DNA of 64,000 bases from Laspinema palackyanum D2c. Its GTDB lineage: Bacteria; Cyanobacteriota; Cyanobacteriia; Cyanobacteriales; Laspinemataceae. This document shows, in pieces, positions 29,411 to 63,356 of the stretch. Both the position numbers and the translations under genes were made by a program. Every line of letters begins with the position of its first letter. The first letter of the stretch is position 1. Location: assembly GCF_025370875.1 (NCBI RefSeq), contig NZ_JAMXFD010000012.1:1-64000 (forward strand), in the 5' to 3' direction. Below the pieces are notes generated by a model, which was not told where the DNA came from, did no database searches, and saw nothing but the letters and a program-made list of their open reading frames with translations.

Positions 29411-29821
29411 CCCGTTCAACGTCCCGACTTCAGTCGTTTCTTTTTCCCCCGTTCAACGTAACGACTTCAGTCGTTTCTTTCTTAAGTTCAACGTCCCGAC
29501 TTCAGTCGTTTCTTTCTTAAGTTCAACGTCCCGACTTCAGTCGTTTCTTTCTTAAGTTCGTAATCCCCTACAAACCAATTGGTGGTCGCAGTCCCCTACG
29601 AACCCGGAAACGACTGAAGTCGTTACTACAAACGAAGAGAACGACTGAAGTCGTTACTACAAACGAAGAGAACGACTGAAGTCGTTACTACAAACGAAGA
29701 GAACGACTGAAGTTGTTACTACAAACGAAGAGAACGACTGAAGTCGTTACTACAAACGGGGGAAACGACTGAAGTCGGGACGTTGAACAGTTAAGAACGA
29801 CTGAAGTCGGGACGTTGAACA
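29411..29821. repeat. Mirrored array of short palindromes, 11 units
   Basis: The unit core is CGACTTCAGTCG inside TTCAACGTCCCGACTTCAGT. Four units read in one orientation (29414-29555). After a 60-base centre, seven read in the opposite orientation with AACGACTGAAGTCGTTACTA as core. Each unit can form a small stem (AACGACT/AGTCGTT), and the two halves can pair with each other. The same family forms a second array at 41290-41625. It fills the gap between the CHASE2 protein gene and chlI; no gene is present. Confidence 0.85.
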
Positions 29822-37432: not shown

Positions 37433-38524
37433 AGCGGTCATGCAAAATAAATTGCATATTTTATAATTTTGAGGTAAAATCAGTAATTTAGACATAAATA
37501 TGCATAGACAAGGAGAATAATCTATGAAATTTATAAATTTATATCCCGAAACTGAAAAAATGCTAGAAAGAATTTATCACAATAGCCAGCATCATAAAGT
37601 TAGGCAAAGAGCTCATTGCATTCTTTTAAGTTATAGAGGCTTTAAAATGGAAAAGTTATTAGAAATTTTCAAAATAAGTCGTCGAACTTTACAATATTGG
37701 TTTCAACGCTGGGAGCAAAACAAATTAACCGGGTTGTATGACCAACCGGGAAGAGGAAGAAAAGCCAAGTTAACACCTCCCCAAAAACAGCAAGTTAAGG
37801 AGTGGGTAAAAGCAGAACCAAAAGACTTAAAAAGGGTCATAAACCAAGTTCAAGACTCATGGGGAATTAAAGTCAGCAAAGACACGATAAAACGAATATT
37901 AAAAAAGTTAGGTATGACCTGGAGAAGAATGAAGAGAGGATTGGCTGGAAGTCCCTTTGAATGGGAATATGAGTTCAAACTGGAAAAATTAAAAGAATTA
38001 AAAGAGTTAGATAAGAATGGAGAAATCGACTTGAATTTTTTAGATGAATCAGGGATGTCTTTGACGCCTTCACTACCTTACGGATGGCAAGATAAAGCAG
38101 AGAAGATTATTCTTCCAAGTTCTTCCAGTAAAAGGTTGAATGTATTGGGAGTAATGAATCGACGGAATGAATTAAAGTATGAAACATATTCTGGAAATCT
38201 AAACAGCGAAAAACTGATTAAGTTTTTAGATAAATTTAGTGAAAACTTAACCCAAAAAACTGTCGTAGTAATGGACCAAGCCTCAATTCACACCAGTAAC
38301 GCAGTTCTAGGAAAACTAGAAGAATGGAAGACCAAGAACCTGGAGCTATTTTGGTTGCCTCCGTATTCACCTGAACTAAATTTAATTGAAATTTTATGGA
38401 AATTTCTCAAATATGAATGGATTAAAATAGAAGCTTATAAAAGCTGGCAAAATTTAGTTGATTATGTGACTAATGTCCTCGATAATCTGGGAAAAGAATA
38501 TGCAATTAATTTTGCATGACTGCT
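37433..38524 (+). mobile_element. IS630-family insertion sequence, complete
   Basis: The element is 1,092 bp. The ends are near-perfect inverted repeats of about 28 bp (AGCGGTCATGCAAAATAAAT and AGCAGTCATGCAAAATTAAT read inward). It is flanked by TA on both sides (37431-37432 and 38525-38526), the target typical for IS630/Tc1-type elements. The transposase is intact, so the element may be active. Its low G+C and lack of HIP1 sites contrast with the surrounding genes. Confidence 0.92.
37524..38519 (+). CDS. IS630-family transposase
   Basis: The protein has 331 residues in one frame. An N-terminal winged-helix/HTH part (KISRRTLQYWFQRWEQNKL, then GLYDQPGRGRK) precedes a DDE domain. Its acids lie in LNFLDESGM near residue 175, VVVMDQASIHTS near 248 and LIEILWKFLK near 293. 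AAGGAG lies 10 bases before the ATG. The last codons overlap the right terminal repeat. No frameshift is needed. Confidence 0.93.
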   Translation: MKFINLYPETEKMLERIYHNSQHHKVRQRAHCILLSYRGFKMEKLLEIFKISRRTLQYWFQRWEQNKLTGLYDQPGRGRKAKLTPPQKQQVKEWVKAEPKDLKRVINQVQDSWGIKVSKDTIKRILKKLGMTWRRMKRGLAGSPFEWEYEFKLEKLKELKELDKNGEIDLNFLDESGMSLTPSLPYGWQDKAEKIILPSSSSKRLNVLGVMNRRNELKYETYSGNLNSEKLIKFLDKFSENLTQKTVVVMDQASIHTSNAVLGKLEEWKTKNLELFWLPPYSPELNLIEILWKFLKYEWIKIEAYKSWQNLVDYVTNVLDNLGKEYAINFA

Positions 38525-39950: not shown

Positions 39951-41264
39951 ATGTCAGCGATCGCCCAAACTTTATCCAGTATTCTTGGTTCCGACAGCGT
40001 TATCGAGTGGCAAAATCTCGATTCTGACACCCAACAGCGTTTGTGTCGCGCTTTTCCTGAGTCTTCCCTTCCCCATTGCATTGCCTATCCTTCAACTCAA
40101 GCAGAATTAGTTGAGGCGATCGCCGCTATTGCTGCAAGTCGCTGTGCCTTCGTCCCTGCTGGGTCCTTGAGTAAAATCGATTGGGGTGGAGTTCCCTCGG
40201 GAGTGCAGGTGATTTTGAGCACCGCACGTCTGAATCGCCTGATTGAACACGCTGTTAATGATTTAACGGTGACGGTAGAAGCGGGGATGACTCTCGCCTC
40301 ATTACAATCTATTCTGGCTGATTCGGGTCAGTTTTTGGCTTTAGATCCAGCTTATGGCGATCGCGCTACATTAGGAGGAATTGTTGCCACTGGGGATACT
40401 GGCAGTTGGCGACAACGGTATGGGGGAGTGCGCGATCAACTGTTGGGGGTTTCCTTCGTGCGATCGGATGGGGAGTTGGCGAAGGCAGGGGGTCGCGTCG
40501 TCAAGAATGTGGCGGGATATGACTTGATGAAATTATTCACCGGGTCTTACGGCACATTAGGGATGATTTGTCAAGTCACGTTTAGAGTTTATCCTCAAGC
40601 GGAGGCATCGGGGACGGTGATGTTGTCTGGGGATACGGGTGCGATCGCCTCTGCGAGTCAAACGTTACTCGGTTCGGCCCTCACGCCGACAGCAGCGGAT
40701 TTGTTGTCACCGGGATTGGTGAAGCAACTGGGCAGAGGGGACGAGATCGGATTGCTAGTGCGCTTTCAAAGTGTAGCAGAAAGTGTGCAAGAACAATTGG
40801 CGCGGTTGATGGCGGTGGGGGAAACGTTAGGATTAAAGGGGACTTGTCATACTCAGAAGGACGAGGCGGATTTATGGCAAGGATTGAGAGAACGAATGCA
40901 ACCGGATGGCACAGAAGAGGCGATCGGCTGCAAAATAGGAGTACGTCCTACAGAAGCGGTGGCAGCTTTATCGAAATTTGCGGCACTTTCTGAGGGTAGT
41001 GGGTTAGGTCAAATTCATCTTAGTAGTGGGTTGGGTTGGTTGCGGTTTCCAGAGGGGACGGTGAAAGAGTCGGTTTTATCGATGCGGCAATTCTGTCAAT
41101 CTTCTGGGGGATTTTTGAGTGTGATGGTTGCACCGATTTCCGTTAAAAATCAGGTCGATGTTTGGGGGTATCAGGGAAATGCTCTTGAGGTGATGCGAAA
41201 GCTTAAGCAGCAGTTTGATTCAGATAATATTTTAAGTCCTCATCGATTTATTGGGGGAATTTAA
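39951..41264 (+). CDS. glcE: Glycolate dehydrogenase, FAD-binding subunit GlcE
   Basis: The protein has 437 residues. It has an FAD_binding_4-type fold with VTVEAGMTLASLQSILADSG near 104, ATLGGIVATGDTGSWRQRYG near 138 and GGRVVKNVAGYDLMKLFTGSYG near 180. GlcE works with GlcD and GlcF to oxidise photorespiratory glycolate to glyoxylate. glcF follows after 388 bases filled by a palindrome array, an unusual gap for a subunit pair. GlcD is not in this window. Confidence 0.92.
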   Translation: MSAIAQTLSSILGSDSVIEWQNLDSDTQQRLCRAFPESSLPHCIAYPSTQAELVEAIAAIAASRCAFVPAGSLSKIDWGGVPSGVQVILSTARLNRLIEHAVNDLTVTVEAGMTLASLQSILADSGQFLALDPAYGDRATLGGIVATGDTGSWRQRYGGVRDQLLGVSFVRSDGELAKAGGRVVKNVAGYDLMKLFTGSYGTLGMICQVTFRVYPQAEASGTVMLSGDTGAIASASQTLLGSALTPTAADLLSPGLVKQLGRGDEIGLLVRFQSVAESVQEQLARLMAVGETLGLKGTCHTQKDEADLWQGLRERMQPDGTEEAIGCKIGVRPTEAVAALSKFAALSEGSGLGQIHLSSGLGWLRFPEGTVKESVLSMRQFCQSSGGFLSVMVAPISVKNQVDVWGYQGNALEVMRKLKQQFDSDNILSPHRFIGGI

Positions 41265-41289
41265 TTGGTATTAAGGTGTCATTCCCTCG

Positions 41290-41625
41290 TTCGTAGTGAC
41301 GACTTCAGTCGTCTCCGGGTGAAGCATGAGTGTTTGTAGTGACGACTTCAGTCGTCTCCGGGTGAAGCATGAGTGTTTGTAGTAACGACTTCAGTCGTTT
41401 CCGGGTTAAACATGAGTTAGGAGAAGTCATGAAATTTTGGGATTGATGAAGAAGGGGATAACGACTGAAGTCGTTACTACGAACTAAGAAAAGAAACGAC
41501 TGAAGTCGTTACTACGAACTAAGAAAGATAACGACTGAAGTCGTTACTACGAACTAAGAAAAGAAACGACTGAAGTCGTTACTACGAAATTGGGAAAGAT
41601 AACGACTGAAGTCGTTACTACGAAC
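41290..41625. repeat. Mirrored array of short palindromes, 8 units, second copy
   Basis: Three units (TTCGTAGTGACGACTTCAGT type, 41290-41402) are followed by five in the opposite orientation (AACGACTGAAGTCGTTACTA, 41459-41625). A 60-base centre separates them. The core is the same as in the array at 29411-29821. The halves are complementary, so a large hairpin could form in glcE-glcF RNA. The array ends 28 bases before the glcF start. Confidence 0.85.
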
Positions 41626-41652
41626 ATTGGGAAATATATTGAGTTGGTGAAT

Positions 41653-43047
41653 ATGCAACCTGTTGAATCTACTATTGCGGCTAAATCTAGTAACTTTTTG
41701 GGGCAAAATCCTCATTTGAATGAGTTAAGCGAGTCGGAAGTGTTGCCGGGATTTGATGCAAAACATCCACCGGATCCGAAACTGATTGATACTTGTGTTC
41801 ATTGTGGGTTTTGTTTGTCTACTTGTCCGAGTTATCGGGTGATTGGGAAGGAAATGGATTCGCCGCGAGGACGGATCTATTTGATGGATGCGATCGCCAC
41901 TGGGGAAGCACCTCTGGCAGAGGGAACAGTAGAGCATTTCGATACTTGTTTGGGATGTTTAGCTTGTGTCAGCACTTGTCCCTCGGGGGTGCAATATGAT
42001 AAATTGCTGGCGGCGACTCGTCCTCAAATTGAGCGCAATTATGAACGGTCCCTAGGCGATCGCGTGATTCGTAGTCTGATTTTTAATTTATTCCCCTATC
42101 CCAATCGTCTACGTCCTTTGTTAGTTCCCCTTTATCTGTACCAAAAGTTAGGAATTCCCAAATTAGTGCGTCAGACGGGATTATTAAAGAAACTCTCCCC
42201 ACGATTGGCGGCGATGGAGTCAATTTTACCCAATATTACCGGGGAGTTTTTCAAGGGGAATTATCCCGATGTGATTCCGGCACAAGGAGAGAAACGGTAT
42301 CGGGTGGGGATGTTACTCGGATGTGTACAGCGGTTATTTTTTAATCCGGTAAATGAGGCAACGGTGCGGGTTTTAACTGCCAATGGCTGTGAGGTGGTGA
42401 TTCCCAAAGGACAAGGCTGTTGTGCGGCGTTACCGGCACACCAGGGACAGGAAGAACAGGCACAGGCGATCGCCCGTCAGATGATTGATAGCTTTGAAGG
42501 CACTGAGGTTGATTTTATCATAATTAATGCCGCAGGATGTGGTCATACGCTCAAAGAATATGGTCATATTCTCCAGGATGACCCGAATTATCGAGAAAAA
42601 GCTCAAGCCTTTGCCAATCAGGTGAAAGATATCCAAGAATTCTTGGCAATGGTAGGATTAACGGCTAAACTTTCTCCTTTAACCGAAGGGAAATTAACCG
42701 TTGTGTATCAGGATGCTTGTCATTTGTTACATGGTCAAAAAATTAGTCAGCAACCGCGCCAGATTCTTAAACAAATTCCGGGGGTTGAACTGAAAGAACC
42801 CATTGATGCTGCCTTATGTTGTGGCAGTGCGGGGGTTTATAATATGCTCCAGCCGGAGGTATCGGAAGAGTTGGGTCAGCAAAAAGTGCAGAATTTGCTT
42901 AATACAGGTGCCGAATTAATTGCCTCTCCTAATCCGGGTTGTGCATTGCAAATTCAAAAGCATTTGCAGTTAGCGGGAAAAGATATCCCGCTGATGCACC
43001 CGATGGAATTATTAGATTTATCAATTCGGGGGGTGCGGTTGAAATAG
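41653..43047 (+). CDS. glcF: Glycolate dehydrogenase, iron-sulfur subunit GlcF
   Basis: The protein has 464 residues. Two 4Fe-4S clusters are bound by CVHCGFCLSTCPSY near residue 46 and CLGCLACVSTCPSG near 98, followed by two CCG domains with cysteine motifs (GCCAALPAHQG, CCGSAGVYNM). It passes electrons from the flavin subunits to the quinone pool. The frame extends upstream into the palindrome array (to 41590), but those codons translate the repeat. I therefore chose ATG at 41653 (MQPVESTIAAK). GTG at 41647 is an alternative. No strong ribosome site is visible. Confidence 0.92.
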   Translation: MQPVESTIAAKSSNFLGQNPHLNELSESEVLPGFDAKHPPDPKLIDTCVHCGFCLSTCPSYRVIGKEMDSPRGRIYLMDAIATGEAPLAEGTVEHFDTCLGCLACVSTCPSGVQYDKLLAATRPQIERNYERSLGDRVIRSLIFNLFPYPNRLRPLLVPLYLYQKLGIPKLVRQTGLLKKLSPRLAAMESILPNITGEFFKGNYPDVIPAQGEKRYRVGMLLGCVQRLFFNPVNEATVRVLTANGCEVVIPKGQGCCAALPAHQGQEEQAQAIARQMIDSFEGTEVDFIIINAAGCGHTLKEYGHILQDDPNYREKAQAFANQVKDIQEFLAMVGLTAKLSPLTEGKLTVVYQDACHLLHGQKISQQPRQILKQIPGVELKEPIDAALCCGSAGVYNMLQPEVSEELGQQKVQNLLNTGAELIASPNPGCALQIQKHLQLAGKDIPLMHPMELLDLSIRGVRLK

Positions 43048-63226: not shown

Positions 63227-63284
63227 TGCAGTTCATAGAAAGGCGAATCACCATGAACATGAAAAACGTACTCTTGTAAGCATA

Positions 63285-63356
63285 CTCCCCATCCTCCCCA
63301 TCCTCCCCATCCTCCCCATCTCCCCCATCCTCCCCATCTCCCCCATCCTCCCCATC
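63285..63356. repeat. Tandem CTCCCCATC repeat
   Basis: Eight imperfect 9-base units (CTCCCCATC, with CTCCCCCATC variants) run right up to the stop codon of the phosphatase gene. Such a tract is prone to slippage. Confidence 0.8.

What the first reader, a model, noticed from the sequence alone, without database searches (positions are those of the whole stretch)
41290..41652. Second mirrored array sits inside the glcE-glcF gap
Eight units with the same flip (three forward, five reverse) occupy the space between two subunit genes and end 28 bases before the glcF start. If co-transcribed, the mRNA would carry a large hairpin that could set the GlcE:GlcF ratio. If not, the glcF promoter must lie inside the array.
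Basis: partly seen in the sequence, partly recalled or inferred. Interest (0 to 1): 0.6.

Follow-up and report, generated by a model that had tools for sequence, protein, structure and literature searches.

The report
Mirrored REP repeat cluster between glcE–glcF
The mirrored array between two glycolate-oxidase genes of a Laspinema cyanobacterium is one of roughly 800 copies of an ordinary dispersed palindromic repeat (a GTAG-tagged REP with its matching transposase), and related species that lack or have lost the array keep both genes intact, so a dedicated role in balancing the two proteins is unlikely.

Summary
The array is real: three forward and five reverse copies of a 25-nt GTAG-tagged palindrome (GTTCGTAGTAACGACTTCAGTCGTT) at 41289–41625, with a 60-nt unique centre. 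It is not special to glcE–glcF. About 800 copies are spread over the 7.0-Mb genome (reversed-pattern control 0), and about a quarter of clusters show the same forward-then-reverse order. The unit has REP anatomy. A REP-associated tyrosine transposase (RAYT; matches NF047646 and E. coli TnpA-REP) sits beside the same units; in L. palackyanum it lies at the centre of an FFFF–RAYT–RRRRR array. Across eight Laspinema genomes the glcE–glcF gap holds 3F+5R, 5F+≥4R, 2F+5R, 7F+6R, a decayed ruin, one decayed unit, or no array; one is unreadable because its contig breaks there. Genomes with the RAYT carry ~800–1360 units; those without carry 79–231, except one incomplete MAG. The RNA would fold strongly (z −13), but the decayed or empty gaps of two congeners do not fold beyond chance while GlcE and GlcF stay intact. 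Best reading: a REP/REPIN (BIME-like) cluster seeded by RAYT and enlarged by local tandem duplication. Any effect on GlcE:GlcF is untested. New member of a known kind.

The parts
39951..41264 (+). glcE (glycolate oxidase FAD subunit-like)
   Evidence: ORF; FAD_binding_4; best NCBIfam match GlcE PRK11282, below its cut-off
41289..41313 (+). REP unit F1 (GTAG head, stem GACGACT/AGTCGTC, loop TC)
41332..41356 (+). REP unit F2 (same GAC...GTC stem as F1, 43 nt on)
41375..41399 (+). REP unit F3 (stem AACGACT/AGTCGTT)
41400..41459 (.). centre, single-copy in this genome; orthologous copy in G003, G006 (90-92%) and G005 (82%) at the same place
   Evidence: alignment
41460..41484 (-). REP unit R1
41495..41519 (-). 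REP unit R2
41530..41554 (-). REP unit R3
41565..41589 (-). REP unit R4
41601..41625 (-). REP unit R5; the position of the one unit still recognisable in G007 and G001
41626..41646 (+). conserved glcF leader (TTGGAGAATATATTGAGTTG in congeners)
   Evidence: (7 of 8 genomes)
41647..43047 (+). glcF (Fe-S subunit-like), likelier start GTG 41647 (ATG in congeners) rather than ATG 41653
29414..29820 (.). the other mirrored array of the window, 4F+7R of the same unit

Best explanation
The array is a cluster of GTAG-tagged REP elements in head-to-head order (GTAG ends outside), a REPIN/BIME-like structure. A REP pair facing each other across a 60-nt centre settled in the glcE-glcF gap in an ancestor of the genus. 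Each arm then grew or shrank by tandem duplication or deletion of unit plus spacer, while the pair decayed or was lost in other lineages. The dispersing agent is inferred to be the RAYT (TnpA-REP, a HuH tyrosine transposase) in the same genome, which would recognise GTAG plus the single-stranded hairpin. Shown: anatomy, dispersal, mirrored order elsewhere, RAYT adjacency, presence/absence and copy-number variation at the orthologous site, decay in a genome lacking the RAYT. Inferred: mobilisation by this RAYT, tandem duplication as the growth step, and that any effect on glcE/glcF mRNA is a tolerated side effect.
For: Genome-wide: 386+428 places at up to 2 mismatches, reversed-pattern control 0. 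In a 1.97-Mb sample: 328 units in 106 clusters, of which 26 HH (F+R+), 7 TT, 4 mixed; adjacent opposite pairs 32 FR to 15 RF, p=0.019. Siting is REP-like: convergent gaps 34 against 17.5 expected, divergent 8 against 25.5 (p=1e-6), and clusters in co-directional gaps are nearer the upstream stop in 39 of 55. RAYT: NF047646 92.9 bits over a cut-off of 80; PDB 4er8 TnpArep E=1.4e-7 with HuH and tyrosine region aligned. The RAYT lies directly beside the units in G000 and G003 and between FFFF and RRRRR in G004. The RAYT is in 3 of 8 Laspinema genomes, which carry 809, 1083 and 1359 units; those without carry 79, 102, 194, 231, and 1134 in one 87%-complete MAG. Orthologous RAYTs in other genera are flanked by GTTCGTAGT plus different self-complementary stems. 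Orthologous gap: 3F5R, 5F and at least 4R, 2F5R, 7F6R, decayed, one decayed unit, none. Units within an arm share their own spacer and the arms differ (43 against 35 nt), as tandem duplication predicts. Stem changes are often matched on both sides (A-T to G-C 5 units, A-T to C-G 9, G-C to C-G 2).
Against: The centre of this array is single-copy, so movement of this particular pair as one unit is not shown. The RAYT-abundance link rests on 8 genomes with one exception (G006). No transposition event was observed. A minority of the 147 sampled units have a broken stem pair.
Confidence: 0.9

Rival explanations
1. Intercistronic regulator: on a glcE-glcF transcript the paired arms form a large hairpin that protects glcE mRNA from 3'-5' decay and/or hinders transcription or translation into glcF, setting GlcE above GlcF, as I recall (from memory) for the malE-malF REPs of E. 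coli.
For: Co-directional genes; strong predicted fold, z -13, also in L. palackyanum, z -8.3; array kept in four of the seven congeners whose gap can be read, the window included; arrays generally sit in transcribed 3' regions.
Against: Hairpin absent or decayed in three congeners (G002, G005, G007) with intact GlcE and GlcF; unit number varies freely; outgroup gaps carry no such array; the same array occurs beside many unrelated genes.
Confidence: 0.12
2. Promoter or transcript start inside the array drives glcF separately.
For: The gap of 382 nt from the glcE stop to GTG 41647 is long enough for a promoter.
Against: No sigma-70-like match in 40900-42000 (0 found, 1.5 expected); G007 has only about 70 nt between the genes; the units avoid divergent (promoter) gaps genome-wide.
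Confidence: 0.05
3. Attenuator or partial terminator: unit hairpins followed by U-rich spacer stop part of the transcription, mainly on the antisense strand.
For: Three terminator-like sites on the minus strand within the reverse arm.
Against: None on the plus (glcEF) strand; 3 found against 1.1 expected is marginal; the array is lost in congeners.
Confidence: 0.05
4. CRISPR-like or other functional repeat-spacer array.
For: Regular spacing.
Against: Orientation flips in the middle; spacers within an arm are near-identical copies; units scattered at hundreds of places in the genome; no Rfam match in the array.
Confidence: 0.01

Closest known systems
GTAG-tagged REP elements (Di Nocera et al. 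2013, PMC3733652), including cyanobacterial GTAG families
   Same: GTAG before a short stem with a 2-nt loop fitting TY; alternative complementary stems; HH pairs favoured; clusters; extragenic
   Different: This stem was not matched to one of the 24 listed families (their Figure 1 sequences are not held); the long one-way arms here are larger than simple dimers
REPINs with RAYTs (Bertels & Rainey 2011, PMC3116915; includes Nostoc punctiforme)
   Same: Inverted REP doublets with spacer that fold into a hairpin; RAYT nearby; abundance follows RAYT
   Different: Arms multiplied in tandem; centre of the glcE-glcF copy is not itself dispersed
BIMEs and REPtrons with TnpA-REP (E. coli, Stenotrophomonas, Marinomonas; Corneloup et al. 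2021, PMC8266576)
   Same: tnpA-REP gene enclosed by REP and inverted REP; perfect palindrome preceded by GTAG resembles the group-3 REPtrons; catalytic motifs aligned with 4er8
   Different: Activity not tested; cyanobacterial host
malE-malF intercistronic REPs of E. coli (from memory; not read here)
   Same: REP pair in an operon gap between two subunit genes
   Different: Effect on mRNA shown there, only conjectured here; array not conserved in the genus
Small dispersed repeats of cyanobacteria (Elhai et al. 2008, cited in PMC3733652)
   Same: Very short dispersed repeats in cyanobacteria
   Different: Listed in PMC3733652 among REP-like families lacking conserved terminal motifs

Membership tests
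REP element (GTAG super-family) | 20-40 nt palindrome with GTAG at one end | tested here: met
   GTAG-T-AACGACT-TC-AGTCGTT; 7-bp stem, 2-nt loop
REP element (GTAG super-family) | High copy number in one genome | tested here: met
   814 places, control 0
REP element (GTAG super-family) | Extragenic, avoiding promoter gaps | tested here: met
   97 of 105 clusters lie outside predicted ORFs; divergent gaps depleted, p=1e-6 (simple ORF caller)
REPIN / BIME | Inverted REP pairs separated by a linker | tested here: met
   26 HH clusters of 74 multi-unit clusters in 1.97 Mb; 32 FR against 15 RF pairs
REPIN / BIME | The doublet is itself the dispersed unit | tested here: inconclusive
   Met for composites with a shared 117-nt core at fixed junctions; the centre of the glcE-glcF array is single-copy
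RAYT / REPtron | TnpA-REP gene adjacent to, and enclosed by, cognate REPs | tested here: met
   L071 FFFF-RAYT-RRRRR; L069 and L070 one side (L069 contig ends soon beyond the gene)
RAYT / REPtron | HuH motif and catalytic tyrosine | tested here: met
   HYH at residue 87 and Tyr147 of P0001 aligned with 4er8
RAYT / REPtron | Cleavage of its single-stranded REP | not testable with these tools
   Needs purified protein
Intercistronic mRNA-stabilising REP (malE-malF type) | Change in upstream or downstream mRNA level due to the REP | not testable with these tools
   No expression data available
Intercistronic mRNA-stabilising REP (malE-malF type) | Array or hairpin conserved at the locus, if it served a genus-wide glcEF function (my own criterion) | tested here: not met
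   Absent or decayed in G002, G005, G007

The most novel reading that the evidence does not exclude
In the lineages that keep it, the array has been co-opted as a length-adjustable element in the glcE-glcF mRNA, so that tandem gain and loss of units tunes the GlcE:GlcF ratio between species.
Probability: 0.08. Interest if true: 0.5.

Novelty: new member of a known kind. Interest (0 to 1): 0.24.

Why it matters
It turns an apparent operon-specific regulator into a case of REP spread and decay. The genus Laspinema offers a natural series, with and without RAYT and with grown, decayed and empty arrays at one orthologous site, in which both REP dynamics and the long-standing question of whether intercistronic REPs change operon stoichiometry could be tested without engineering the array.

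Tried and rejected
Rfam scan: no RNA family in the array. Sigma-70 scan: nothing on either strand. Homology of the array centre with the G002 gap: not above shuffled. The idea that the centre is a shared mobile core was rejected for this array, though it holds for other arrays. L003 flanks read N in one stretch, so its exact unit number is unknown. The GlcF tree (G003 not included because its contig ends in the gap) gives only moderate support for two pairs (G000+G004, G002+G007), so gains and losses could not be polarised further; G007 keeps one decayed unit, so the gap was probably not simply empty in the ancestor of that pair.

Full report
Observation. The array is as described. Three forward units (41289, 41332, 41375; period 43) and five reverse units (41460, 41495, 41530, 41565, 41601; period 35–36) lie between glcE (stop 41264) and glcF. 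The core has 33 matches in the window against 0.17 expected. The array ends at 41625. The GlcF start is better placed at GTG 41647: the congeners have ATG there and one has no ATG at 41653. The gene names hold as best NCBIfam matches, below the models' cut-offs.

What the unit is. Read on the forward strand, each unit is GTTC-GTAG-T-AACGACT-TC-AGTCGTT: a GTAG tag one base before a 7-bp stem with a 2-nt loop. This is the anatomy of GTAG-tagged REP elements (PMC3733652). Among 147 units of one sample the GTAG head and the stem are largely kept. Several stem types are compensated on both sides (AACGACT/AGTCGTT, GACGACT/AGTCGTC, AACGCCT/AGGCGTT) and G-T pairs are rare.

It is everywhere. The genome (7.03 Mb) holds 386+428 places with up to two mismatches, against none for the reversed pattern. 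In 1.97 Mb read directly there are 328 units in 106 clusters: 37 one-way, 32 single, 26 forward-then-reverse, 7 reverse-then-forward, 4 mixed. Forward-then-reverse neighbours outnumber the opposite 32 to 15 (p=0.019). Clusters are enriched in convergent gaps (34 against 17.5) and depleted in divergent gaps (8 against 25.5; p=1e-6). In co-directional gaps they sit nearer the upstream stop (39 of 55, p=0.003). The glcE–glcF array is one of a few that also lie close to the downstream start. Gene calls for these counts came from a simple ORF picker.

The transposase. One gene of the genome (C42) lies directly downstream of at least seven of these units, matches the NCBI family REP-associated tyrosine transposase above its cut-off, and aligns with E. 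coli TnpA-REP (4er8) including the HuH and tyrosine regions. In L. palackyanum the orthologue stands between four forward and five reverse units: the RAYT sits at the centre of the same kind of mirrored array. Orthologues in several other genera are flanked by the same GTTCGTAGT-like head with other self-complementary stems, as expected if RAYT and REP change together. Of eight Laspinema genomes, the three with this RAYT have 809, 1083 and 1359 units; four without have 79–231; one incomplete MAG (87%) has 1134 units and no RAYT found. The sample is small.

The orthologous gap. The gap contains: window 3F+5R; G003 5F and at least 4R (contig ends); G004 2F+5R; G006 7F+6R; G005 a decayed ruin with the centre and two decayed R units still recognisable; G007 one decayed R unit; G002 none, with other filler; G001 at least one R unit of the GCC/GGC stem type (contig ends). 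The centre of the window's array is single-copy in the genome and present in G003, G005 and G006 at the same locus. Outgroup gaps carry other fillers or are short. Wherever they could be read, GlcE and GlcF remain 91–94% and 96–98% identical in congeners regardless.

Fold. The window gap folds to −162.8 kcal/mol against −95.7±5.2 for shuffles (z −13), G004 z −8.3. The decayed gap of G005 (z −0.27) and the array-free gap of G002 (z −0.92) do not exceed chance. The large hairpin is therefore a real property of this array but not a conserved one.

Mechanism. Best supported: REP pairs dispersed with the help of RAYT, then local tandem growth within each arm, because the units of one arm share a spacer that the other arm lacks. 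Dispersal by this RAYT and growth by tandem duplication are inferred from pattern, not observed. An effect on glcE/glcF mRNA remains possible as a side effect; E. coli malE–malF is the precedent (from memory). Nothing here shows it and the losses in the genus argue against a necessary role.

Verdict. An ordinary, well-explained dispersed repeat cluster; a new member of a known kind, with a useful natural comparison series.

Noticed in passing
G000:C1:476325-476563 (L134) and about 47 matches in the genome: Composite element: a 117-nt core with two inner palindromes (GCGTTACTTGGC...GCCAAGTAACGC and ...GTTATGGC...GCCATAAC...) flanked at fixed junctions by one forward and one reverse REP unit; 47, 54, 49 and 38 matches in G000, G003, G004 and G006 but 0-8 in the other four Laspinema genomes.
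   Followed up: partly
L002 (G000:C7:117088-117426): A second RAYT (NF047646) lies among about 16 copies of a different palindrome, AAGAAACCGGGTTTCT, in alternating pairs about 50 nt apart and without a GTAG tag.
   Followed up: partly
29414-29820: The other mirrored array (4F+7R) mixes two tail types, GTTCGTAGT-like and GTTCAACGTC, and its centre holds decayed units.
   Followed up: partly
sampled units of G000; L038 near 3492: Some units carry the loop as GA instead of TC relative to the GTAG head (7 of 147), as if the palindrome had been flipped in place.
   Followed up: no
L036/L090 (G001) and L035/L092 (G007), rightmost unit before glcF: At the orthologous rightmost position the stem type differs between species (GAC/GTC against GCC/GGC), suggesting conversion between REP subfamilies.
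   Followed up: no
L037 (G002), L040, L041, L046: glcE-glcF gap: The gap is filled by other, unrelated palindromic or simple repeats in other cyanobacteria, so it seems a tolerant site for dispersed repeats.
   Followed up: partly
37524-38519: IS630-family transposase ORF (331 aa), about 1.4 kb upstream of glcE.
   Followed up: no
63281-63356: Tandem array of a 9-mer CATCCTCCC, 8.4 copies.
   Followed up: no
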